Assembly (NCBI GenBank): GCA_026874595.1
Contig: CM049322.1
Coordinates: 33,622,340 to 33,686,339 of the forward strand
Length of the DNA stretch: 64,000 bases
Reading direction: 5' to 3'
DNA from: Sipunculus nudus
Taxonomy: Eukaryota > Annelida > Sipuncula > Golfingiida > Sipunculidae
Shown: one piece after another, positions 1,400 to 49,380 of the stretch
Layout of the letters: every line of letters starts with the position of its first letter
Numbering within the stretch: the first letter of the stretch is position 1
The notes under the pieces: model-generated
What the model saw: only the letters and a program-made list of their open reading frames with translations
Databases searched by the model: none
Told to the model about the DNA's origin: nothing
Translations under genes and position numbers: made by a program

Positions 1400-2260
1400 A
1401 AATGTTATCCCCAGTGCACGAAATTTACCAACGGTCCATCTGACTGGTAGATCACCGTCCTCTTTCCCTGCTCTGCAGCCTAACCACAGGGCTTACGTTT
1501 TATCTAGATTTGCTTTTAAGCCCGATTTTTTTTTCAAAATTATTAAAATTTTCGAGAAGCCGTTTTCCTGACACCAGATCTAATTGACTTGTCGTTTCGG
1601 ATATTAATCGACAATAATTTAAGTGCCAAAACATATAGAATGGGCGATAATGGACACCCTTGTCGAACTCCCCGCTTTATTAGATATCGATCTGACATAA
1701 AACCATTGTTCGTTACACAACTACTTATGTCCGTATAAAGAACCTTAACCCATTCCTGATAGTAACTGGGTATATTATATTCATTTAATGTTTGCCATAA
1801 GAAATCCCATTCTAAGGTGTCAAAAGCCTTTTCTAGGTCGACCAGGATTAGTAAATCTGGAATTTTATGTATAGAGGATAAGTTTATAACATCTTGTATT
1901 ATTCTTACATTTTCACACTAATATATCGGCCTGGCAAAAACCTGTTTGGTTTGGGTGTATAAGGTGAGATAAATATGGTTTCAGCCTGTTTGACAAAGCT
2001 TTAGCTATTATTTTATAATCAATTGGGAGAAGTGAAATTGGCCGCCAGTTTTTTATTAAAATTTTGTTTTTATCTTTTTTTTTAATTAGCGATATTAGGC
2101 CCCTTTTTTGTTCTACTGAAAGCGACTTAACTCTGAATGAATAATTTATACACTGTAAGAATAAATCCGATATACTATCCCAGAAAAATAAATAAAATTC
2201 AGAAGTGAAACCATCGAGTCCAGGGCTTTTCCCCGGCTTGAATTCTTTTAATGCACGGTG
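1400..2260 (-). pseudogene. LINE reverse transcriptase domain, multiply frameshifted
   Basis: Translating the minus strand gives the classical RT blocks in order: GKSPGLDG, WRPISLLPIDYKI, FLPGRYIS, the motif A block LVDLEKAFDTLEWDF, then GVRQGCPLSPILYVLA. They are spread over several frames. After the PLSP block the sequence continues through SINIRNDKSIRSG and then jumps to the post-catalytic GLKANLDKT region at about 1500, so the FADD/YADD segment is deleted. Family knowledge places this with the L1/Tx1 lineage, but the branch cannot be fixed by eye. Confidence 0.85.
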
Positions 2261-2618
2261 GCATTCTGCAAGTGTAAGCGTTTTTTTAGCTGTTCTGTCT
2301 CTGGAAAGTTTGGTTTTGGAGTATTCGGTTGGTTAAAGAACACACATTTTATTGGTCCATTTGAATTAGTTCTTTTGGATATATAGAGGTCCCGGTAAAA
2401 ATCATGGCATACTTCTAATATTTTTGTCTGGTCACTAATTAGATTTCCGTCTTTTTCAAGCGTCGAAATGCATTTACCATTATAATTAAACGTGTTTTAA
2501 CTTCTTTTAATTTGCCAAGGGATATTTCATCTTCTGGGTTTTCGTTTGTTTTTACAAACAATTTTTCAAACTCTTTCTTAAGTATTTCTTCCTCTCTTTT
2601 CTTCCGCTTTTTTCCGTT

Positions 2619-2897
2619 TTAAATATTGGATTGTGTACCCCCGGATTTGGCACTTAACTGTGTCCCACACTGTATGTTTATTTCCACTTCATTATATTTG
2701 GTTATTTTACATAAAAGGGATTTTATTAAATGTACATATTCAACTTCTAATAACAATTCATTATTAAATTTCCAATAGCTTGGACCTCTTTTCTTTTGTA
2801 AGTTTGATTGAAATGTCACCGTTATTAAGCAGTGATCTGAGATTGTGGACGCTTTTATTTCGGAAGATTTTAGAGAGGGGAGTAATGTTTCTGACAT
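2619..2897 (-). pseudogene. LINE endonuclease C-terminus and linker
   Basis: A 92-codon frame contains ISDHCLITVTF, the terminal SDH block of APE endonucleases, where the His is catalytic. It continues into the poorly conserved linker that leads to the reverse transcriptase. It sits downstream of the broken endonuclease frame at 3068-3532 with the spacing expected for one ORF2. Stops separate it from both neighbours. Confidence 0.75.
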
Positions 2898-3067
2898 TAA
2901 CCAAAAGTCTAATCTCGAAGCAACCCAGGGATTTTGCTGGACTCGTGTATATTAACTATTTGTAGGGTTCATCGATCACCAGGCATCAAAAAGAGAAAAG
3001 CTTTTACACATATCCTGTATTTTAATCCCTGAAGGACTTATCTTTTCGCTTGGCCCGCCTTTCTTGT

Positions 3068-3532
3068 CTAATGCTGGATCAAGTATAATATTAAAGTCTC
3101 CCCGAGTATGATTGTATTATCAATGTACGGAGTTATGTATGTTCTTAAGGTATCTATCACAGCAACTTGATCCTTCAGGTGGTCTTTGGTAGGCATGTAA
3201 ATATTAACTACTATGAAATTCTCTTCATCAATGACACAATCGATTAGTAATATCCGACCAGAAGGGTCTTTCTGTGATGTGTTAATAGTAATTTTAAGAT
3301 CGTTGGTCCACAAAATTGGAACTCCTTTACTTTTATTTGATCCATGCGCAAATTCGATTTTACTACCCCATTCTTGTGACCAAATTGGTTCATCTTTAGA
3401 TTTTCTAATAGTTTCCTGTAAAAATGTCACTGTCTTTTTATAATCTCTTAAATATGTAAATATTTTCTGCCTTTTGACATAATTTTTCATTCCTCTTACA
3501 TTAAGACTGTTAATTTGGAAATTGAATGACAT
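3068..3532 (-). pseudogene. LINE APE endonuclease domain, N-terminal part
   Basis: The 154-codon frame starts with NSLNVRGM, the first conserved block of APE-type endonucleases (N for metal coordination). It follows with FLQETIRK (the catalytic-Glu block) and VVNIYMPT. The GGDFN block near 3095-3110 is broken by a one-base loss, so the frame ends in unrelated residues; the neighbouring frame continues with DFNIILDPALDKKGG. The C-terminal SDHCLI block of the same domain is at about 2835 in the next open frame (2619-2897). The enzyme would nick target DNA for reverse transcription, but this copy is inactive. Confidence 0.85.
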
Positions 3533-3646
3533 GATAATTTGATTATATTTCTCAATGCATTTTGCACCGAGTCTGTAGAGAGAGCATTCATTAAGAATCG
3601 GGTAAATTTATCCGATTCCATTGACTCAAGTGGGTCCATTTCTCTC

Positions 3647-36239: not shown

Positions 36240-37822
36240 ATGTTGGTATTTTTACTCGGGGTACTGATACCACTCAGACAGATTAATTCTATGCAGCTGC
36301 TTATAGTTACAGTGCTTGGGCTCCACTTAGAAAGTCCGGTCCGTGGGTGGACCTCCCAGGATAGGTTCGATGGTGAATTGATACTCTTGGAGTACCATGG
36401 CCAAATCCATAATTCGCTTATAAAGGCACTTTGCCTTATTGATGTAAGCCAGCGGTTTGTGATCCGTTTGGATTACAAAATGCTTACCAAACAGGTAACC
36501 TCAAATTTACTTATGGCCCATAAAATGACCAATGCTTCCCGTTCTATCACGGAATAGTTTCTTTCTCTATCGGCCAGCTTTCTACTGGCATAAGCCATAG
36601 GATGCAGACTGCCATCACATTCCTGCAAACGGATGGCGCCAAGACCGTTATCAGATGCATCTGTCCTAAAGAAAAATCTCTTCGAGAGGTCAGGCAATTG
36701 TAATATGGGAGGTTTGACCAGCAATGCTTTCAAGTTCTGAAAGGATTTCTCTTGGGGATCAGCCAATTTGACCTTGTTACTCTGACCTTTACGGTCAAGC
36801 TCCGCAAAATTTGGAATAAATTTCCGATAAAACCCAAGCAGTCCCAAGAATGACCTTATTTCTTTTTTGTTGTCGGTCTCTCTGTATTCTGAACATTGTC
36901 AAGTAATAATTGATCAGTTGCAAGTTTACCCCTACCAAACTTATGACCAAGAAATCCAAGGTCAAAGAAACCAAAACAGCATTTGTTTGGTTTGGCTGCT
37001 AAATTCGCCTCTTTCAGGATTCTGAAAACCTGCTCAAGTAGAGTCAAGTGATCTGACCTTGACGCAGTATGACAGAGCACACCATCAATATAACATGCGC
37101 CATTTACATCAGCAAATAATTTTCTCATCATACGATTGAATTGGGCTGGAGCTAGAACAAGACCGAATGGCATAAATTTAAACTGGTATTGTGCATCTGG
37201 AGTCACAAATGCGGTTAATTTCTTTGACTGCTCTGAAATTGAGTTCTGCCAGTATAACTTTGTCAGGTCCAGTTTTGAAAAGTAGGTGTTATTGTTCAGA
37301 AGCGCAAACATATCTTTAGGATTTGGTATTGGTTCCGGATCAAAGAGTAAAATGCGGTTGAGTTTCCGGAAATCAACACAGAAACGTACACTATTGTCTT
37401 TTTACGCACCATTGCAACTGGAGATGCGTACCTCGAGTCTGATCTCTCTGTTATCCCAAGGGAAAGCATATCCTGAATCTCTTTTTGCTTTGTCTCTCTC
37501 AATGCATACGGGACTGGGTATGGCTTAGAACGTACCGGCTGAGCAGTAGTGACCTGTCACATTCTATTACATGGGCTTTCTTTGGGATGTCAGTAAACAC
37601 GCTTTCATACCTATCTTTTAGACTAATCAGCTGGGCTTTCTGAATGAGTTTGTCACTTACCTGTATGTCAGCAGGACCTGGCTTACCTACAACACTTGGC
37701 ATGGTTATTATACACATTCCATCATTTATCATCTCATAATCAAGATTCTGGTCTCCTGTACTGGAATTAGTAATACTTGCAAGAGACAATGCTTCATCAC
37801 AGGGTGTTAAACGGCAAATCAA
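36240..37822 (-). pseudogene. Reverse transcriptase and RNase H remnant
   Basis: The leader (37822-37499) ends LKDRYESVFTDIPKKAHVIE, a typical start of gypsy RT. It continues with DMLSLGITERSDSRYASPVA (37502-37296), the motif A block FSKLDLTKLYWQN and QFKFMPFGL (37311-36856), then CYIDGVLCHT. The last is the YxDD box with its second Asp changed to Gly. The thumb GLLGFYRKFIPNFAEL and RNase H blocks FRTDASDNGLGA, IEREALVILWAI and IQTDHKPLAY follow (36847-36310). Frameshifts separate the parts. Confidence 0.9.
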
Positions 37823-37924
37823 ACAAGCTCAACGCAGAAGGAGCTGAATTAGTTCTCTCAACATATTTTTTTCAGCAAATTAATGTGCAAAAAATTGACT
37901 TTACCTTTCATTTTGATCCTGTAA

Positions 37925-38861
37925 TCACAGTCGTTGAATCTCTTTAGGCCTGCCTGTAGGAAGTAATACTAAGACCTTATCACCTACCTCTAAGGATCTG
38001 GGTTTTGCTTCCCGGTCATAGTATTCTTTATACCTGCCGGCTGCCATGCTCAGCATCTGTTGTGCTAAGTCACAGGTGTCGGACAGTCGCTGTTTTAAGT
38101 CAATCACATACTGATACGTTGTTTTAATGTCAGAGTCAGTACCTTCTTTTGTGAGTAGTTCTTTCAACACTTTCATGGGTCCTCCCACAGACCTGCCATA
38201 TAACAAATCAAAAGGGGAAATCCGCCTAAAGATTCATGAGGAGATTCACAATAGGCGAATAGGACTGGGGCCAAACAGCGGTCTCAATCCCTGGGCTGTT
38301 CAGCACACATTCGTTTGAGCATTCTTTTGAGGCTGTCATTAAATTTTTTTACAAGTCCATTACAACACTGATTGTAGGGTTTAGTTGTCAACTGTCTAAT
38401 GCTAAGTAATCTGCTTACCTCGAGCATTATGGATGACGTGAACTGGCTGCCCATATACGTCAAAACTTCCTCAGGTATGCCAAGTCTACTGCAAATGTCA
38501 AGTAAAGCCTCAGCCACAGTTTCTGTTTCAATGTTACGAAGTGCAACAGCCTCCGGATACCATGTAGCGTAGTCCATTGCTGTTAAGATAAATCGCTTAC
38601 CAGTGTCTGATGCAGGGAAAATCGGGCCCACCAAATCCAGGGAAATGCGCTTGAAGGGTTAGTCTATCAGAGGCACTCTGCCCAACGGGACTCTATAGTA
38701 ACCTTACCCTTTTGTATAGTCATTTGACTAATGTCACAAGACTTGCAGAATTGTGAGACATCGGCATGAACACCTGGCCAAAAGAACTGAGAGCTAACTC
38801 TTGCCAAAGTGCGACCAATGCCTTGGTGACCAGACATTAGGGCTTCATTGGCCAACTTCAT
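37925..38861 (-). pseudogene. Integrase remnant, zinc and catalytic ligands altered
   Basis: The HHCC domain (38861-38667) reads KLANEALMSGHQGIGRTL and FCKSCDIS; the first His position is Asn, while the second His and both Cys remain. The core (38634-38284) has the first catalytic Asp in LTAMDYATWYPEA. The second Asp is Tyr (LTYMGSQF) and the Glu is Lys (NGLVKKFN). The C-terminal part (38206-37925) has GDKVLVLLPTG. Three frames are separated by small indels. The enzyme would join element ends to host DNA; this copy cannot. Confidence 0.88.
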
Positions 38862-38939
38862 AATGTCTGCCCTGTAACATTTGGAACAATAAACTTGGTT
38901 TGGAACTCACCTGAATTATATTAATCTGCCCGCAGACGC

Positions 38940-39473
38940 ACTAAAGCTCCGTTCTTGATGGCAAACTTACATTGACCAACTTGAACCTGAGAAACCTTGT
39001 CCCATAGGTCCGAAATAGAATGATCATTCTTCTGAGCATCAAGAAAGTCTGAGCGACTAACTGCAGAAATCGGGCTTGGAACAGAGAGAGGCTTTGGAGA
39101 CTTACCTTTATTCCTAGCATTGGCCCTTGTTTCTACTGCACTAGCAACATCAAGAGTGTGGGGTGCATCTCTAAGAGGAGAGATCCAACTAGTATCTGGA
39201 CATTGTGGCTCTCCATCATCCTTAATATTACCTACTATCGGGTCATAAACTGGGTTGTCAACACAGAGTGCCTCCGGTAAAGAATGGAGTATTCACCTTT
39301 ACCTGTGCCAGTGGAAAGGTTTTCACTGTTCCATCAATAAGTATACATGTCTGGGACTTACCAGTAATTTGTTGTGGTGGAACTAATACAGACCGTACTA
39401 CAGCACTGCTACACCAAGATTCTCTTAAAACCGACACTTCGCAGTTGGAGGTAACACCTTTACAGGTAGGCAT
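38940..39473 (-). pseudogene. gag-pol spacer / protease-position region
   Basis: Broken frames read SVLRESWCSSAVVRSVLVPP, GTVKTFPLAQVKVNTPFFTG and SDLWDKVSQVQVGQCKFAIK, collinear between the gag and integrase remnants. A DSG/DTG protease active site is not visible, so the protease is either too degraded to see or deleted. The last segment resembles the region directly before the integrase zinc domain in gypsy elements. Confidence 0.55.
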
Positions 39474-39495
39474 GCCAGGTGGATGAATTTCGGGC

Positions 39496-40480
39496 TTACC
39501 AATTAAGGATATCCAGCTCCCTTTTACTTTGAATATCAGGTCGACTTTCTGTTGGGAAAGTATCAGGCAAACATTTATTACCTTCAGAGGGTACCTTACC
39601 TGTTATATTTAAAGCCTCGATCTTGACGGCTTTCTCCACCGCTTTTTCAACTGCCTTACTTACTGCGTGATCCCTTGCTTCGGCGATAGCATGTGGCTGG
39701 TCCAAAGCCTGAAAAGCATGAATGGATTCTCTAGCCTTTTCTGGCAGTTTCCATTGAAATGGGTTGTGACCTTCAACTCCACAATAAAAGCAATTTAGGA
39801 TAGATGAACTAGCAGTAGAAGCAGAGGTATACTTCTTGCCTTGTTCAGAATACTTGAATCCAGTCTTCTCAAGTGGTTTTTCATTTTGTTTGAGACTAGT
39901 ATGTGGTTTGTGGAAAGAGGTAAAACTACCATGTCCATGAGCATCTACAAACCTCTCTACAGTTTCAGTCATTGAGTCAATGTAATGGGAGTCCCGCTCA
40001 CGCAAGAAAATAGACAGTTCCTTGGAACATGAGTTCAGGAATTGCTCTACTAAATCTACTAGGCAAAAGGTCTACTAGAGACTCATAAGATCGCTCAATC
40101 CCTGAAAGTCTTACCCAATTGTCAAAATAACCACTGATTCTGGCAACAAATTGCTATGGGGATTCCTGCTTTACGAAATTTTGTCCGATACCCTTCTTCA
40201 GTCATTTGGTACCGTTTAAGTAAAGCTAACTGTTGCCTGTCATAGCATGAGGGAAGACGTGTATAAACCTCAAGGGACTTACCTTTTAGCAAAGCACCAA
40301 GTCAAATAGCCCAATCCTTTTTCTCCCATTCCTGACCTTCAGCAAACATTTCAAATTGCTCCAGATAGACATTCATTCTGTCTCGACTTTCCGCAAAGGC
40401 TCGCATTTAAAAAAAAAGTCATACCTGAAGGTTTTACTGGAGTTTGGGGAGGGGGACTATTTTCAGCATGTTGTAATTTT
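39496..40480 (-). pseudogene. gag remnant with altered zinc knuckle
   Basis: The minus-strand region opens with MKLKLQHAENSPPPQTPVKP near 40485. It continues through frame-shifted capsid-like sequence (NVYLEQFEMFAEGQ, then YDRQQLTLLKRYQMTEEGYR). It becomes open at 40005-39496 for 169 codons. There CFYCGVEGHNPFQW gives a C-x2-C-x4-H-x4-W spacing, so the fourth ligand of the CCHC knuckle is Trp. A repeat-like AVSKAVEKAVEKAVK helix follows. Gag would form the particle and bind RNA. Confidence 0.75.
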
Positions 40481-41529: not shown

Positions 41530-42990
41530 CCCAAATCTTTCACTAATCAAATATTAATTGAAAAGAAAATAATAATAACTCCTTTGATGCATCCTTAATA
41601 CGAGGAAAATGGTTATTTATACAAAATAGCTTTAAAATAAAATATATAATAAGATTTTGATTAATTCTATTAAGTATTAGTCACACGATTGATATATCGG
41701 TAATGGATGAAAAGGACTACTCAGCGTGTGTAATTAATTATGTTCAGAATGTATTTTTTTTTCATAGACCGGAGTTTAGAAATCTCCTGTTCAGTTCAAC
41801 ACCTATTGACCCATTAAGCAATGACAATGCATCACCGAAAGGGGTTCAAGACATCTGTGTCGGAATATTGTAGCTTCCTCACATTCTACCTTAAAACACC
41901 TTAACTTAAGTATAATATAAACGATTAAACATTTACGGTTTCTTAAATCTAACTGATAATAGGCCTCATCGAAAGACAGGTGTTCCTCTGATCTTCTTAT
42001 TGTAACGGTCCTTATATTATTTTAGCATGTTTTCTTCTGTTCAGTGAAAACAAAAAAAAGGCGAAACATATAATTGATTCGCATCCGCAAACATCCTGTA
42101 ACGGACCTATTGCCTAGTTCTAAGGCTCGTTTCTAATTCCCATCATATGTGTATGTTTATCTCCTTTATGTTTAAGGGGATTCAATGCAAACATAACAAA
42201 AACAATAGGTCTTTACTTGAGCCGGAAAAGTAGATATCCTGTGTAAAAATACTTATTGTTGCTGTAAAAATATTAGGTCATATGACGCTCATGTAGTAAT
42301 GTTGTGTCGTTTCTTTTTCCAAATGACATATGAATTATTCCATCGCAATATAAAAACAAATGCTCAAAACCACAACCACAAGGAACATGTTAATGATCAA
42401 CATGGTCCCACACGTCCCCAATTAAAAAGTAAACCTTATAATATACCGCAATTAAATGGGCACATATGTTTAGAAAATTTAGTGTAAGCCGCCACTAGTA
42501 TTTTGAAATCCTAAAATTAAAAAACATTTGTTTCGTAGGAGAACAAGTTGTGCTGTTTATGAGTATTTTTTTTATCACGTCAATGGTTCTTCCCACGTAG
42601 TTTCATTTTCCCGTGTGTCTATGATACAAAATTAAAACATATGCATAGTAGTTTTAAACTGACTCCTAAAGCATATAAAGCTACCAAACCTTTACGCATT
42701 TTTTTATTTAGCAAGGATTCAAATTTGGTAAATATTATATAAACATAATTAATCTTTAATTTATAACTCCTTATTTCAAAGTAATATGTCACAAACTTAT
42801 GATTTTAATAATAGTAATAATAAAAATAATAATAGTTATAAAACTGTTTTGGCCCACAATTTTTTATTATTATAACGTTGCTGTTACTTTCACTTTTACT
42901 ATATAACCTTGCCACCCGAAACATTATATTATTATTACTGATTCATATGAGCATTACCAAATTTCCTGAAAAGTGTCAATGCCGCGGTTT
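41530..42990. repeat. Block C copy 2, right part
   Basis: TTTCACTAATCAAA through TTATTATTACTGATTCATA aligns with 21570-22910. It holds the empty site (41726-41746) for the SINE-like insert of copy 1. No gene seen. Confidence 0.85.
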
Positions 42991-44985
42991 ATGTTTTAAC
43001 ATATAATAACCTGTATGTATAAGCTGCTGAAGGGGATTTATTGTCTTATTGCCTTTGTTTTTCTTCTGACTGGGTGATGTTGTTAACATGTGAAAACAAT
43101 AAGCTTTCATTACATTCACGTGGTTATTTGCTTCACCATGTCGTCCACAACACACCATAATGTGTTTGATTGAATTAAGGGAAAAAGTAAAATCAGTTTT
43201 GATATATTATAACCGTCAAGCATTGTTAAGGTGTTGGCACGTAAGTTTTATATGTAATTGCCAGTAGTGATGCATTATAATAACCACATATGAAACAATA
43301 CTGTATTCTTGTAAACCGTGTATTATGTATTAACGATATAAACCCAGGAAATTATTCTAAATATCTTATTAACTGGCATATTAAACGTCCTTACGACATT
43401 ATTGTTATAAATGCCTTACATTTCGCAGCTATTTCAGTTCAAACATAAAAATTACAAGCATTTGAATTAATTTAAATTATACATTGCATGAAAAAATCTA
43501 GAGTATTCCTGTAGCATATTTTATGGTACTGCATGCTCTAATTTTTCAAGACACCTATAAGATGCAAACCCTTCTTAAAATAACTATAACATATCAAGCA
43601 AATTTTGTACAACAGCTGTACATGTTTTACGACATGTACGAATTGTGAATTCATATTCTGTTAATTTGATATAAATATTTTGGTTTGTATAGTACCCTTT
43701 TAAACCAATGCATCAAAAATGTATAAGTGAGAAGACGATCGTATACCTTTCTATAAAAAAAAACGGTTTTTTTCAGTCACAAAATGTTTCCCGTGCAATA
43801 TGAGCATCCTTTAAGGTCGATACTGAATCAACATATTAAAATGGCAGATGTTGTATTTCAGCCGCCGAGAAGCTCAGATGCAATAAGCTCATCCGAATAA
43901 AGGAACCAAATAAAAGCAAAATTCTTGTCTATATTAAAGGTATTAAAGATTAATGTATGTATTGGTTATTTTCAACCTCTTATATACAAGTGACACCAAG
44001 GAATAAATTATTTCACTCTAATGAATCTCTATGAATTCATTTCTTAAATTAACAAATATAGGACAAAAAGAAATGATCCTGAAGTCAGACTTTTCATTCA
44101 ATAAATTTGTCATGTCAAATTGTATATTTGACTCCAATTATGATTATACAGAATTAATATCACAGGACACCAACGTCCGTGATCGAGTATTTAGGTCTAA
44201 TTCGAATTGAGACGAATACAAGTATAAACTCTTAGGAAGAACTAAATCATAAAACCAGTGGTAAATACTATCTGACAAATAAAACTGTAGCTATAAAACC
44301 ACTAAGTGTGATGAGCCTTAGGAATCTATTTTTGTTAAAACTTTATGTGAGTCAAAATAGGTAAATAGTTTGCTTGGAGTAGTATGTATGACAAATGGAA
44401 ATAATGATCAACAAATGGCAAATGAACGATGTAATATACATTATAGCTCGCTCTTCTTTGAAAATGCACGTTTTGTAACCAAGTGATGCGTTTTGCATAT
44501 TTATTAACTCTGTATAACAATTTGTTTTATATGTGTTTTACCGCTAATTCGACTACTACTATCGCGTATAGTTCAACACATTAAGTCTCATATCACAAAT
44601 GCATTAAGGACTAACCCAATTAATCCCATTATCATCCTGCGTATAGACATTTTGACCGCTTTAAAACGAGAACAACATGGTCTTGCCATCAGTCTGACAT
44701 TGTCCGTATTTCATTCAACTGAAGGAATACATCCCCTCTTTTTACACATCATGTGTAGACTTAAGTTGAATCTTCATTCACATCAAACCCTTTTGATGTA
44801 AATTATTTTGACATAAGCACTGTTTATTAACTCATAAATCATGAGGTCAAACCAGAAATATTTTTGCGTTTTTTGTACATACAAAATAACCATATGCTGC
44901 TATAGATATAAAAACATTCTCAACTGATACGATGATTATTCTTCAGTGAAATAATTGCTTTATTTAACAATAATGATGAATAGTT
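42990..44985. other. No firm feature; CTLR2 3' exons expected here
   Basis: CTLR2 exon 8 ends in phase 1 at a GTAAAC donor, so at least one more exon should lie at lower coordinates. I could not pick one with confidence. A short plus-strand frame (43842-43901, starting MADVVFQPPRSSDAISSSE) and possible AATAAA signals are present but unsupported. Confidence 0.3.
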
Positions 44986-44988
44986 TAC

Positions 44989-45030
44989 CTTTGTTGATAG
45001 CTCCTACAAAATCCTGGATTTCCGCGTACA
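44989..45030 (-). CDS. CTLR2 exon 8, 42-bp micro-exon encoding YAEI
   Basis: Bordered by a strong polypyrimidine tract with TTTTAG and a GTAAAC donor. Joining to exon 7 gives EVYAEIQDFVGAINK. VYAEIQD repeats VYADIEE of exon 7, suggesting a duplicated signalling module. Being a multiple of three (42 bp) and flanked by phase-1 introns, it could be skipped without a frame change. Confidence 0.75.
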
Positions 45031-46590
45031 CTAAAAGTACAAAGAAAAACCAGATATAACATAGATGTTAAACTATGATAATAACTTATATATAATTAAC
45101 TTCTCTGTTATTTTCTTGTACAATAGAAACATCTCTTGAACCATAAATATCTTCAGAATAATATTTTTACCTTCACCTTGGGTTATGAAATTGGACGCAG
45201 CCTCTTCTATATCTGCGTATACGGTGCATGAGTGGTTCGTTCGATTCATAATCGATTCGCGTTCATCTCTTTTCTTATACTTCCTAACTTCATCGTATAA
45301 ATGTTCCGCAGTCTGTTCAGATAAAAGTCTGTCCGATTGTCTCACTCCTCCTAACAGAATGTGCGTTTCCATGCGTTCTCCGGTAGCAGCGTATGGGCCC
45401 ATTGGTTCCAATAACTGCGACTCAAAAATGGTTCTTTCTGCCATGTCATTATAGATTGTGGTCGGGCTATATCTAATTAAACATTGTATACCATTTCCAA
45501 TATATTTCATACGTATCCATTGTTTGTTATGATTTATTTAATTAAATTTAGTGATCTTTAAATTTAGTGTTCTCCCATGAGCCAAGAGAGCTAAAGAAAA
45601 AAAAATAATCATACGAAAACTGTTTAAGAATTATAAAATCCTGCTTTAATCTAGACAGACAAACATAAACACGTGTAGGTTTATTGATTATTATTCAGAT
45701 CGAATACCGAATCGAGAGATTTAAGCTTCCTTACCCGCCCTCTCTGAGATACCTGATGCTGTGGACAAAACTCGCAAGGTGCATAAGCACTAAAAGGCAG
45801 CTGCAAACTATTACGACAATCACGTAAAAACTGTTGATATGATGACAGCAGGATAAATTGTTATCTCCTATTTATAAAAAAAAATATAATCAAATTAAAA
45901 TACAAAATAATAACTGAGGACATTAAAATCATGGTCATGAGGCCTTTTTCAAATCTTTCGGTCAATGTCATCACAAAAAGATGGATATTAGTTAGTATAT
46001 CTTATATTTTTCGTTAATTATGAAACAAATTGGTAATAAAATATAAAAAGGAAAGAAAACACGATGCTGTTTTTAATCAAGAGCAAATTTGTTATAGTAT
46101 ATAAATTTTCAATAACTTTCCACGAATTGTCATAGTAAGGTAGAGGCTATATTGAGTGCACCCCATGGTTAATGTGAAGAGTAGAAGAAAAAACCACGCA
46201 TGCGTAAGTCAAAAATATAATTCGCAACTTTTATCCTGACGTCTCACATATGGAAAGCGTACCTTTTTGCGTCGGCGTACCCTGATCCATTTCATTATGA
46301 TGGGAATCGTTTGATCTGTGTTCTAAACTACATAACACGTCACCTGTACTGTTGCATGAAAGTGGTAGCCAAATAATGCTATTGTTACTTTCCAATCTTG
46401 CAACTATGCATTGCTCATCTTTATCAATTTTTGATTGTTCATTGTCAAAAAAAGAGAAGTCCAAATCAATATCTACAACATAAAAATTAAATATATGAAT
46501 GACATTGTAGTTAATTATGGTTTATAATACGTCTTTCAAACGATCATTGCTATCATAAATATGTATCTATCTATCTATCTGTCTATCTAT

Positions 46591-46637
<47 letters not shown>

Positions 46638-46731
46638 ATAGAAGTATAAAAAGCCATGCTGGTTCATTGTATTCAGATGGAAATGGTATACTCCCACCGG
46701 CAGTGAACCGACTTTTCTGAGTATACCATTT

Positions 46732-46783
<52 letters not shown>

Positions 46784-48233
46784 CATATAGATCTCGTAAT
46801 GGAAGGATCATTGTAAAATCAGAACCTTGTGATTACAAAGAAATGACTCTATAAACTCATGATCTGCCATTTTGATAAATGTCTTCCAGTTACTTTAGAT
46901 TTGCATATACATTAGTAAATTAACAGTTCTACCCTTTCCGTCCACTTCTATTTGAATTGAAAATGCGCCGATCCATAATTTTATTGATTCTTTCCTCTTT
47001 CTCAGAAAGTCCTTGATACTTGATGGGTCTGGTATCACAGCCAGTTGACCACCCCATGTTTTGCATGCTGCTCTCGCCGTCCACCAGTCTGACTTTGAGT
47101 GATGCACGGAGTAACTGACATTTCCAATACGGATCCAGTTAATGAATGGTACTCCTGGTGGCCGAAATGTTTCTGTAATAATACAACAAATTTTATTCGT
47201 GAAATAATCTTTAAATTGAGCCAAAATATATTATATATACATATATATTTATATGTACGTAACAAATATTCAAATATTGTTAAGGCCTTCCATACCATGA
47301 TGGGTGCAAAGATATCCTTTATGAATACAACACGGTGATGTTTCAAAGGAAAAACCTGTGATAGTTACACAACCTTGCTCCGAAATATATTGACCTGCAA
47401 AACAAAGTTTAACTGGACATCTATCACATGCACAGTAAAAAAATAGCACTACAAGAAGAAAGCCACTCTAAAAGAAAATGTGTCGATCTGTATAATTATT
47501 TTAGAAGTTGTCTTTTTCATGGTATAGAAACCTCGGATCTCATATTATGGCAGATATTTATAACATTATATAACATATAACATGTTTGAATAGGAAGTTC
47601 ATAAAAAATCACATACCATGGACTGCCCCATTGATCCAATATGTACTATTCATGTGTTTAAGTTTGAATTTAAGCCACACTGAAGTTAAGTTCTGTTGTA
47701 TCATTCTGTCGGCCAGATGAGCATTTTGTGCTGGTGTTTTGTGATCAGGCAACCCGAGGACTTTGTCTGGTTCGGAGGTGTTTTTGCAGTAAAAGTTCGC
47801 TTGCCCCCACGTCATGTTAAACGAAACCGTTCCCCAAGCATCTATATTTCAGAATATGCATTTATTATCCTAAATAAACTAAAATTATGCTATTAGATTT
47901 TAATTTATTTCAATATTCAAGTTATTTGTATTTTATAATGACATTGTTTTAAAGACAAACCCTTTTATGAAAGCATCATAGCCCTTACTCTCAAATCCAT
48001 TTTTTAGATATAGGATTAATGTCAGAACAGTGCCTGTCCTTTAAGTTATTTTATTAGTAGATATGACATGGCACGGTACTCAAGATGTTTCTTGGATAAG
48101 TAAAATTATTATGAATTTTACTTTACAAGATAACATATGCAACATTAAAACGGAAGAGTGCGATTTCCTTACCTCCAGTTACACGAAATATATTGATTAA
48201 GTTCAACTTTATTAGGAAAAGGAACGCCTTCAT
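44989..48233 (-). CDS. CTLR2: two-CTLD transmembrane receptor with tyrosine-motif tail (3' end not found)
   Basis: Exons in order: 48173-48233, 47617-47841, 47296-47394, 46933-47172, 46263-46472, 45753-45867, 45171-45472, 44989-45030. All have GT/AG borders and matching phases. The joined frame is 431 codons: signal peptide, CTLD1, CTLD2, a polar linker, one transmembrane helix, then a cytoplasmic tail of about 115 residues. Tail motifs are YNDM, YDEV, YADI and YAEI, candidates for SH2-domain docking after phosphorylation. The CTLDs lack EPN/QPD and WND motifs. Type I membrane topology is inferred. CTLR1 is the paralogue. The last exon(s) and stop codon are unassigned. Confidence 0.88.
45171..45472 (-). 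CDS. CTLR2 exon 7, cytoplasmic tail with YxxM/YxxV/YxxI
   Basis: 302 bp after a TTTAATTAG acceptor; the first base completes the Arg codon begun in exon 6. Encodes YSPTTIYNDMAERTIF, PYAATGERMETH, EHLYDEVRKYKKRDERES, then SCTVYADIEEAASNFITQGE. YNDM is a PI3K-type YxxM; YDEV and YADI are YxxV/I motifs. An in-frame ATG lies upstream inside the preceding intron, but the splice fit argues that the exon starts at 45472. Confidence 0.85.
45753..45867 (-). CDS. CTLR2 exon 6, transmembrane segment
   Basis: 115 bp after a T-rich tract ending ATAAATAG, with a GTATCT donor in phase 2. Encodes DNNLSCCHHINS, then the hydrophobic helix FYVIVVIVCSCLLVLMHLAS and FVHSIR. The incoming phase fits exon 5 and the outgoing phase fits exon 7. 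This supports a single-pass receptor. Confidence 0.85.
46263..46472 (-). CDS. CTLR2 exon 5, CTLD2 C-terminal half and linker
   Basis: 210 bp from an ATGTTGTAG acceptor to a GTACGC donor. Encodes DFSFFDNE, QCIVARLESNNSIIWLPLSC, NSTGDVLC and a His/Asn/Thr-rich juxtamembrane linker. It joins in phase 1 to the transmembrane exon. Confidence 0.9.
46558..46782. repeat. TATC and TA microsatellites flanking a hairpin in a CTLR2 intron
   Basis: TCTA/TATC units (46564-46590) run into TA (46592-46632), and a second TA tract spans 46734-46782. Between them, GGAAATGGTATACTC (46679-46693) and GAGTATACCATTTCC (46719-46733) form a perfect 15-bp stem with a 25-base loop. Confidence 0.9.
46933..47172 (-). CDS. 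CTLR2 exon 4, CTLD2 N-terminal half
   Basis: 240 bp from a TTATTACAG acceptor to a GTAGAA donor. Encodes ETFRPPGVPFINWIRIGN, YSVHHSKSDWWTARAACKTW, GGQLAVIPDPSS and KLWIGAFS. This is the best-conserved stretch between the two lectin genes. Confidence 0.92.
47296..47394 (-). CDS. CTLR2 exon 3, CTLD1 C-terminal half
   Basis: 99 bp after a TTTTGCAG acceptor, ending at a GTATGG donor. Encodes YISEQGCVTITGFSFETSPC and CIHKGYLCTHH. It has one more Cys than the CTLR1 counterpart (SPCC), so the disulfide pattern may differ. Confidence 0.88.
47617..47841 (-). CDS. CTLR2 exon 2, CTLD1 N-terminal half
   Basis: 225 bp between an AAATATAG acceptor and a GTATGT donor. Encodes NMTWGQANFYCKNTSEPD, the helix region HKTPAQNAHLADRM, and NLTSVWLKFKLK before YWINGAVH. 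It is the direct counterpart of CTLR1 exon 2. Confidence 0.9.
48173..48233 (-). CDS. CTLR2 exon 1, signal peptide
   Basis: Encodes MKAFLFLIKLNLINIFRVTG, ending in phase 1 at a GTAAGG donor. The length of 61 bp equals CTLR1 exon 1. Joining to 47841 gives Asp then AWGTVSFNMTW. A second, defective copy lies 269 bp upstream. Confidence 0.85.
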
Positions 48234-48441
48234 TTTATATTAATCTAATATACCTCTATCTTGAATTGAAGTTTCCTGAAATGTAGAAGAAATGGTTAAC
48301 AAATAAAATAAAACAACGCCATATATAATGAAAAAAAAGTATGACATGACACGGGTGTTTTTAGATAAGTAAAATTATTATGCATTTTACTTTACAAGAT
48401 AACATTTGCAACATTAAAACGGAAGAGTGCGATTTACTTAT

Positions 48442-48502
48442 CTCCTGTTACACGCAAACTATTCATTAAGCTCAACTTTATTAGGAAAAAGAATGCCTTC
48501 AT
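48442..48502 (-). pseudogene. Duplicate CTLR2 signal-peptide exon with destroyed donor
   Basis: Encodes MKAFFFLIKLSLMNSLRVTG in 61 bp, but the GTAAGG donor of the working copy has become ATAAGT. Unspliced reading meets TAA two codons later. Either the exon is dead, or an alternative splice uses other sites. Confidence 0.8.
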
Positions 48503-48604
48503 TTTATATTAATCTAATACACCTCTATCTTTAATTAAATTTCTAAAAATGGAGAAGAAATGGTAAATAAATTAAATAAAACAACGCCGTATATATTGAA
48601 AATC

Positions 48605-49380
48605 AACGTGCAATTTTATCTTGAAGAGACAAAGCTATCAAAACTTGTTAGTGTCAAAGATATTCACTGTCAAAGTGTCTTGTTATTATTCACGTCAGTC
48701 ATGTATATTGCAATTTTTTGCTGCATAGATTCGCCAAAGTTGCTGAAGTTTAACGACAAGTAACACAACATATATAAAGGAAAATCAGAACTTTAATTTT
48801 GTTTATTGACCTTCAGTTCATGTTATATTTTTTACTTAATATATATGCAAAGTGTTTTAAATACAATAACTCTCATATAACAATGAAACAATTCACTGCT
48901 TATACTCCACAACTTTCACACCTTATGTGTACACAGAACATGTTAAACGTAGCCCAGCATTTAAGCCGCAGGACATCTGAACTGGAGGTCAGATATCACA
49001 TACCTTTTTCACATCACGTCTTATCACGGCTTATATGATAAACCTACAATTCATACAAAGATATTTTGTTGGATGTTTACAATCTGCTTCAGTAAATAAA
49101 CAATGCATGCGCAATATAGGGATGTTCGCTTTGTTTACTCACCTGTATATGGAAGACTCACCTGTTACCAATTGTTTATTATAGGGATGGGACTGCACTT
49201 TCCCTGACCAATCTATAGATGAGTCGACCAGTTACAATAAAACGTTAATTGTTTCTTTGTCGACCACATTTTAGGATTATCACGTGCTACCGATAAACAG
49301 AACACTGAACAGTTCATTATACCACAACCATGTATATGTCATTATTTATTTAACAATTATTAAATCTGTCCCTGTTATAA
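48605..49380. other. CTLR2 upstream region, no gene seen
   Basis: Contains open frames without recognised features. It presumably holds promoter sequence for CTLR2. Confidence 0.3.

What the first reader, a model, noticed from the sequence alone, without database searches (positions are those of the whole stretch)
44989..45472. CTLR2 tail carries four tyrosine motifs, two of them a duplicated VYA(D/E)I module joined by splicing
Reading across two introns gives YNDM, YDEV, YADI and YAEI in one tail behind a transmembrane helix. YADI and YAEI are separated by 13 residues, one more than the classical ITAM range, and their -2 residues (Thr, Glu) are not strict ITIM. The pair could be an ITAM-like unit, and YNDM a PI3K docking site. 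A C-type lectin receptor with its own multi-motif signalling tail would be an interesting invertebrate innate receptor. Motif function is inference; splice phases and residues are seen.
Basis: partly seen in the sequence, partly recalled or inferred. Interest (0 to 1): 0.85.

Follow-up and report, generated by a model that had tools for sequence, protein, structure and literature searches.

The report
Lectin receptor with tyrosine signalling tail
This is one gene of a repeated family of cell-surface lectin-like receptors, and comparing the copies suggests that one short tyrosine motif, carried on its own tiny exon, is the best-kept part of the inner tail, while the other tyrosines come and go.

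Summary
The tail is real. CTLR2 (minus strand, 48233 to about 44989) is an intact type I receptor model of eight exons: signal peptide, two C-type lectin-like regions, transmembrane helix and a tail of about 115 residues, with GT-AG junctions in matching phase. YNDM, YDEV and YADI lie in exon 7 and YAEI in exon 8, with 13 residues between the last two. By composition four YxxPhi motifs are only mildly unusual (P 0.03), so I tested conservation in the window's own genome. Eight tail copies form array 1; a more diverged second array lies about 11 Mb away. YNDM is not kept (tail codons 1-55: omega 0.93). The distal tail with YDEV, YADI and YAEI is constrained (omega 0.42, P 0.0016, post hoc split). 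YADI is absent from the three array-2 tails read. Exon 8, YxxIxD, is kept in 10 of 12 copies read and in 8 of 8 open ones, and holds 3 of the 6 invariant columns of eight aligned tails. 'ITAM pair by duplication' and 'PI3K site' are weak; the core looks like a single hemITAM- or Src-SH2-like motif. Oyster C-type lectin receptors with Syk-binding hemITAM tails are already reported.

The parts
48173..48233 (-). CTLR2 exon 1: start codon and signal peptide MKAFLFLIKLNLINIFRVTG (by eye)
   Evidence: GT donor, phase 1; like exon found in paralogues A, C and X, not found in W1, D, E or F at that cut-off
47617..47841 (-). CTLR2 exon 2: first part of CTLD1
   Evidence: GT-AG, phase 1
47296..47394 (-). 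CTLR2 exon 3: second part of CTLD1
   Evidence: GT-AG, phase 1; CTLD1 of CTLR2 is not matched by Pfam on its own
46933..47172 (-). CTLR2 exon 4: first part of CTLD2
   Evidence: GT-AG; Pfam Lectin_C over protein residues 155-257, E 1.4e-7
46263..46472 (-). CTLR2 exon 5: second part of CTLD2 and stalk
   Evidence: GT-AG; Pfam Lectin_C
45735..45867 (-). CTLR2 exon 6: transmembrane helix (by eye; no K/R/D/E in its core), then HSIRYLREG
   Evidence: GT-AG, ends in phase 2
45171..45472 (-). CTLR2 exon 7: tail with YNDM, YAAT, YDEV, YADI
   Evidence: GT-AG, phases 2 and 1; seven further array-1 copies
45442..45453 (-). YNDM (YxxM); not conserved
   Evidence: YxxM in 2 of 7 other array-1 tails; region omega 0.93
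45286..45297 (-). YDEV (YDxV type)
   Evidence: Y..V in 4 of 7 other array-1 tails (A, C, E, F), and 1 of 3 array-2 tails (YGDV)
45208..45219 (-). YADI in TVYADI
   Evidence: Yxx[IVM] in 6 of 7 other array-1 tails; 0 of 3 array-2 tails
44989..45030 (-). CTLR2 exon 8: 42-nt mini-exon, YAEI with I at +3 and D at +5
   Evidence: Y, I and D in 10 of 12 copies read, missing in W1 (exon gone) and in the degenerate 41.36-Mb copy; first 26 nt 71% identical between arrays, flanks 29-33%
45017..45028 (-). YAEI
44761..44789 (-). Tentative exon 9, ...GFDVNEDST stop; acceptor shifted in CTLR2
   Evidence: acceptor AG in 7 of 8 aligned copies, lost in CTLR2; in phase

Best explanation
CTLR2 is an intact, probably working member of a duplicated family of type I surface receptors with two C-type lectin-like regions. 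Its tail is a phosphotyrosine docking scaffold. Clustering of the ectodomain would let a Src-family kinase phosphorylate the tail. The core site is exon 8, Y-x-x-I-x-D with Glu or Asp before it in most copies: a single acidic YxxI that would dock Src-type or Syk-type SH2 domains (hemITAM-like). YDxV (Nck-type) and, in array 1 only, YADI add further docking sites, which would couple the receptor to actin and uptake and strengthen Syk binding. Shown: gene structure, motifs, conservation, selection on the distal tail. Inferred: splicing in the cell, phosphorylation, SH2 partners, direction of the signal, ligand.
For: Eight-exon model with GT-AG junctions in phase. Lectin_C once in CTLR2, and two Lectin_C stretches (at E<=1) in each of three paralogues given. 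Distal tail omega 0.415, P 0.0016, proximal 0.93. Exon 8: Y, I(+3), D(+5) in 10 of 12 copies read and 8 of 8 open ones; E or D at -1 in 9 of those 10; 3 of 6 invariant columns in eight tails. Between arrays it is 71% identical over its first 26 nt, while the DNA before and after is at 33% and 29% and its own 3' part at 29%. TM core has no charged residue that would pair with an adaptor (by eye). Precedent: oyster CgCLec-HTM and CgCLec-TM1 are reported to associate with CgSyk through a hemITAM-like tail (PMC13027682 and PMC12842671, passages).
Against: No transcript, phosphorylation or binding data. CTLR2 itself departs from the family: V instead of E/D before YAEI, and a lost exon-9 acceptor. 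The split of the tail was chosen after seeing the alignment, with five sequences; pairwise tail ratios run up to 1.10. X lost YDxV and the array-2 tails read lack YADI, so the other sites are dispensable. The three array-2 tails read were the three of six without in-frame stops. The presence of Syk, Nck or Src in this genome was not shown: the SH2 search did not complete.
Confidence: 0.58

Rival explanations
1. The YADI/YAEI pair is a true ITAM that binds the tandem SH2 domains of Syk as one unit.
For: Gap of 13 is the same in the five open array-1 tails, and the linker EE.AS.FI.HGE is largely conserved.
Against: 13 exceeds x6-8 (PMC10008955, passages). Strict Yxx[IL] pairs are in only 3 of 5 open tails (W2 by inspection), and YADI is absent from 3 of 3 array-2 tails read.
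Confidence: 0.17
2. The motifs are YxxPhi sorting signals read by AP-2: the receptor is an endocytic scavenger, not a signaller.
For: All four motifs of CTLR2 fit YxxPhi; lectin receptors are often endocytic (recalled).
Against: Acidic residues round the exon-8 Tyr and the Asp at +5 in the ten copies that keep it are typical of kinase/SH2 sites rather than of basic AP-2 signals (recalled).
Confidence: 0.13
3. Inhibitory or switch receptor: TVYADI (TxYxx[VI]) and YAEI recruit SHP-2-like phosphatase.
For: TVYADI fits the switch motif (recalled) in W2, A, X and D.
Against: Neither motif fits ITIM (I/V/L/S)xYxx(L/V) (PMC10008955, passages): -2 is Thr and Glu, +3 is Ile. The switch form is lost in C (TAYAEM), F (PVYTDV) and the three array-2 tails read.
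Confidence: 0.08
4. No signalling role: chance motifs in a drifting, decaying array.
For: Composition P only 0.03; W1, E, D and the 41.36-Mb copy carry broken tails; three of six array-2 tail places hold stops; TM omega is not significantly below 1.
Against: Distal tail and ectodomain are constrained; exon 8 is kept between arrays while its surroundings are near chance.
Confidence: 0.04

Closest known systems
CgCLec-HTM and CgCLec-TM1, Pacific oyster C-type lectin receptors with hemITAM-like tails (PMC13027682, PMC12842671; passages only)
   Same: C-type lectin domain, transmembrane helix, tyrosine-based tail; CgCLec-HTM is described with a C-terminal TM, so type I order
   Different: CgCLec-HTM is described as single-domain, and both with one hemITAM; here two lectin-like regions, three to four YxxPhi motifs, the core motif on its own mini-exon, in arrays; QPS/WHD listed for CgCLec-HTM, no such motif seen by eye in CTLD2 here
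Vertebrate CLEC-2 / Dectin-1 / DNGR-1 hemITAM receptors (PMC10008955, PMC9287148; passages)
   Same: lectin-like receptor, single YxxL/I, own tail
   Different: vertebrate ones are type II with N-terminal tails (recalled); +3 is Leu there and Ile here
Nephrin YDxV tail (PMC12203975; passages)
   Same: YDEV/YDDV fits YDxV, the Nck SH2 motif
   Different: one site here against three; lost in X and D
Classical ITAM receptors
   Same: two YxxI in one tail
   Different: gap of 13 instead of 6-8; first site (YADI) missing in the array-2 tails read

Membership tests
C-type lectin-like domain proteins | Lectin_C profile above its curated cut-off | tested here: met
   CTLR2 32.6 bits against 22.6, one stretch, residues 155-257; paralogues A, F and X 29.8-42.7 bits with two stretches each at E<=1
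C-type lectin-like domain proteins | EPN/QPD and WND sugar and calcium motifs | tested here: not met
   read by eye in CTLD2 of W2, A, C, X, F: FFDNEQ/FWETEL and WLPLSC/WQPFLC in those places; domain membership does not need them
Type I transmembrane receptor | signal peptide, then ectodomain, TM, tail in one spliced frame | tested here: met
   signal peptide and TM judged by eye, no predictor run; no transcript
ITAM | YxxL/I-x6-8-YxxL/I | tested here: not met
   gap is 13 in CTLR2 and the four other open array-1 tails
ITIM | (I/V/L/S)xYxx(L/V) | tested here: not met
   -2 residues Thr (YADI) and Glu (YAEI), and +3 is Ile. YDEV has His at -2; YNDM has Thr at -2 and Met at +3
ITSM | TxYxx(V/I), recalled | tested here: met
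   TVYADI in CTLR2; not kept in C, F or the three array-2 tails read
hemITAM receptor | single YxxL/I that binds Syk after Src-family phosphorylation | tested here: inconclusive
   motif in 10 of 12 copies read, acidic -1 residue in 9 of those 10, V in CTLR2; Syk binding not testable
Nck docking (YDxV) | YDxV, phosphorylated, bound by Nck SH2 | tested here: inconclusive
   sequence met in CTLR2, A, C and F; binding not testable
PI3K p85 docking | YxxM (recalled), conserved | tested here: not met
   sequence present in CTLR2, kept in 2 of 7 other array-1 tails

The most novel reading that the evidence does not exclude
One receptor family shows an ITAM-like pair in the making: an old single acidic YxxI on a 42-nt mini-exon is the fixed signalling unit, and array 1 gained a second YxxI at a constant 13-residue distance, giving a stepwise path from hemITAM to a double motif in an invertebrate, independent of vertebrate ITAMs. 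The direction (gain in array 1 rather than loss in array 2) is not shown.
Probability: 0.15. Interest if true: 0.68.

Novelty: new variant of a known kind. Interest (0 to 1): 0.45.

Why it matters
Invertebrate lectin receptors are plentiful, but a tail whose signalling motif is supported by comparison rather than by pattern matching alone is more useful. Here natural copies separate the sites: one tyrosine is kept in both arrays, two are kept in part, and one is free. That names which tyrosine to test first, and offers a case for asking how single and double YxxI motifs arise.

Tried and rejected
Exon-7/exon-8 duplication: rejected at DNA level. YNDM as a family PI3K site: rejected. Read-through of exon 8 as the C-terminus of array 1: it gives unlike ends (KGKLFIIIVK* in W2, KG* in A, no stop in the 40 codons read in C, X, F), so exon 9 is preferred but unproven. 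The three array-2 tails read do end in exon 8. Rfam on window 42900-49000: no match at gathering thresholds. PDB sequence search: best hits CD23-type CTLDs, E 0.00027, no help for the tail. Weak Pfam DUF7923 match over the tail (E 0.04, below cut-off): ignored. A first codon-model run printed no omega and was replaced. The 41.36-Mb copy has a degenerate tail. Structure prediction was not used: the spliced protein is not read letter for letter from the DNA.

In print: none of the rows listed by searches named a two-CTLD molluscan receptor with this tail. Several lists were cut (20 of 43, 20 of 977, 25 of 7,097, 15 of 13,960, 8 of 20), and only open-licence papers are held. I saw listings, and passages of nine papers.

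Full report
What is there. The minus strand of the window carries a gene whose exons I rebuilt from the sequence: 48233-48173 (signal peptide), 47841-47617, 47394-47296, 47172-46933, 46472-46263 (two C-type lectin-like regions and a stalk), 45867-45735 (transmembrane helix), 45472-45171 (tail) and 45030-44989 (mini-exon). The junctions of these eight exons are GT-AG; the phases match (1,1,1,1,1,2,1) and there is no stop. Pfam finds Lectin_C once, at residues 155-257 (E 1.4e-7); the first lectin-like region of CTLR2 is not matched on its own. In three paralogues given (A, F, X), two Lectin_C stretches at E<=1 are found in each. By eye, the canonical sugar and calcium motifs are missing in the second domain. 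There is no transcript evidence; splicing is inferred from phase, consensus and conservation.

The finding. By letter composition this is only mildly unusual: 4 of 7 tyrosines in YxxPhi against 1.44 in shuffles (P 0.03), and an ITAM-like pair in 3.8% of shuffles. Conservation therefore decides.

Selection. With five open array-1 genes and a codon model written for this purpose, omega is 0.49 for the ectodomain (P 9e-10), 0.71 for the TM exon (not different from 1, P 0.29), and 0.65 for the tail (P 0.022). Splitting the tail before the YDEV region gives 0.93 (P 0.8) for the proximal part and 0.415 (P 0.0016) for the distal part. The split was made after seeing the alignment. Pairwise tail ratios range from 0.35 to 1.10, so the signal is moderate.

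Is it a duplicated module? DNA similarity of the two segments is no better than shuffled (P 0.45). Protein similarity is P 0.009 for CTLR2, and 0.03 with the paralogue-majority letters. Convergence on a short motif is as good an explanation as duplication.

The end of the tail. In the three array-2 genes read, exon 8 ends in a stop. In array 1 a GT stands at the donor place in seven of seven copies with exon 8, and a conserved block downstream has an acceptor and, by eye, a short open end (EDST stop in A and F, KDST stop in C). CTLR2 has lost that acceptor; an AG six bases on (44789-44761) or an earlier one (44819-44803) would keep the frame. The last ten or so residues of CTLR2 are therefore open.

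How it most likely works. Shown: a type I receptor model with two lectin-like regions, a TM core without charged residues, a tail with one fixed YxxI and two partly fixed sites. Inferred: ligand clustering, Src-family phosphorylation, docking of a Syk- or Src-type SH2 at exon 8, Nck-type docking at YDxV, an extra YxxI site in array 1. YDxV as a Nck motif is from PMC12203975 (passages). hemITAM signalling by one YxxL is from PMC9287148 (passages). The ITAM and ITIM formulae are from PMC10008955 (passages). The switch-motif formula, AP-2 preferences, p85 preference and Src SH2 preference are recalled.

Against what is known. Oyster C-type lectin receptors CgCLec-TM1 and CgCLec-HTM are reported to bind CgSyk through hemITAM-like tails and to raise IL-17 (PMC13027682, PMC12842671; passages). 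So a molluscan lectin receptor with its own tyrosine tail is not new in kind. What differs here is the two-part ectodomain, the motif set, the mini-exon and the arrays.

Verdict. A real, conserved signalling-type tail; the pair and the PI3K reading are the weak parts, the mini-exon motif the strong part.

Noticed in passing
window 43089-43682 (positions 1790-2383 downstream of the tail exon start, minus strand): A block of about 600 bases downstream of the gene is 65-85% identical across eight copies in 40-column steps, about as high as the tail exon, yet has 11-17 stops in every frame of CTLR2's copy and no Rfam match. Possibly regulatory or a long 3' UTR.
   Followed up: partly
window 48443-48502: A second copy of the signal-peptide exon (MKAFFFLIKLSLMNSLRVTG, 75% identical) lies about 270 bases upstream of exon 1; its donor reads ATAAGT instead of GTAAGG.
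   Followed up: no
window 6405-4871 and C17 just before the window: The window's other lectin gene (W1) has ectodomain exons in the window, but its tail, outside the window, has frame shifts and no exon 8: a likely pseudogene.
   Followed up: partly
C17:33831772-33835162 (offsets 289772-293162 in the joined stretch; L029): Copy F shows its four ectodomain exons twice, 2,115 bases apart with identical protein matches: a gene with doubled ectodomain, a very recent duplication or an assembly error.
   Followed up: no
window 36476-40071, minus strand: ORFs that read like gag-pol of an LTR retrotransposon lie downstream of CTLR2 (by eye).
   Followed up: no
window 1546-3607, minus strand: ORFs that read like a LINE endonuclease and reverse transcriptase lie downstream of the W1 ectodomain exons (by eye).
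   Followed up: no
L037, L038, L039 (C17:45.1-45.3 Mb): Second array of the same receptor family with more diverged tails; in the three read, exon 8 ends in a stop and YADI is absent.
   Followed up: yes
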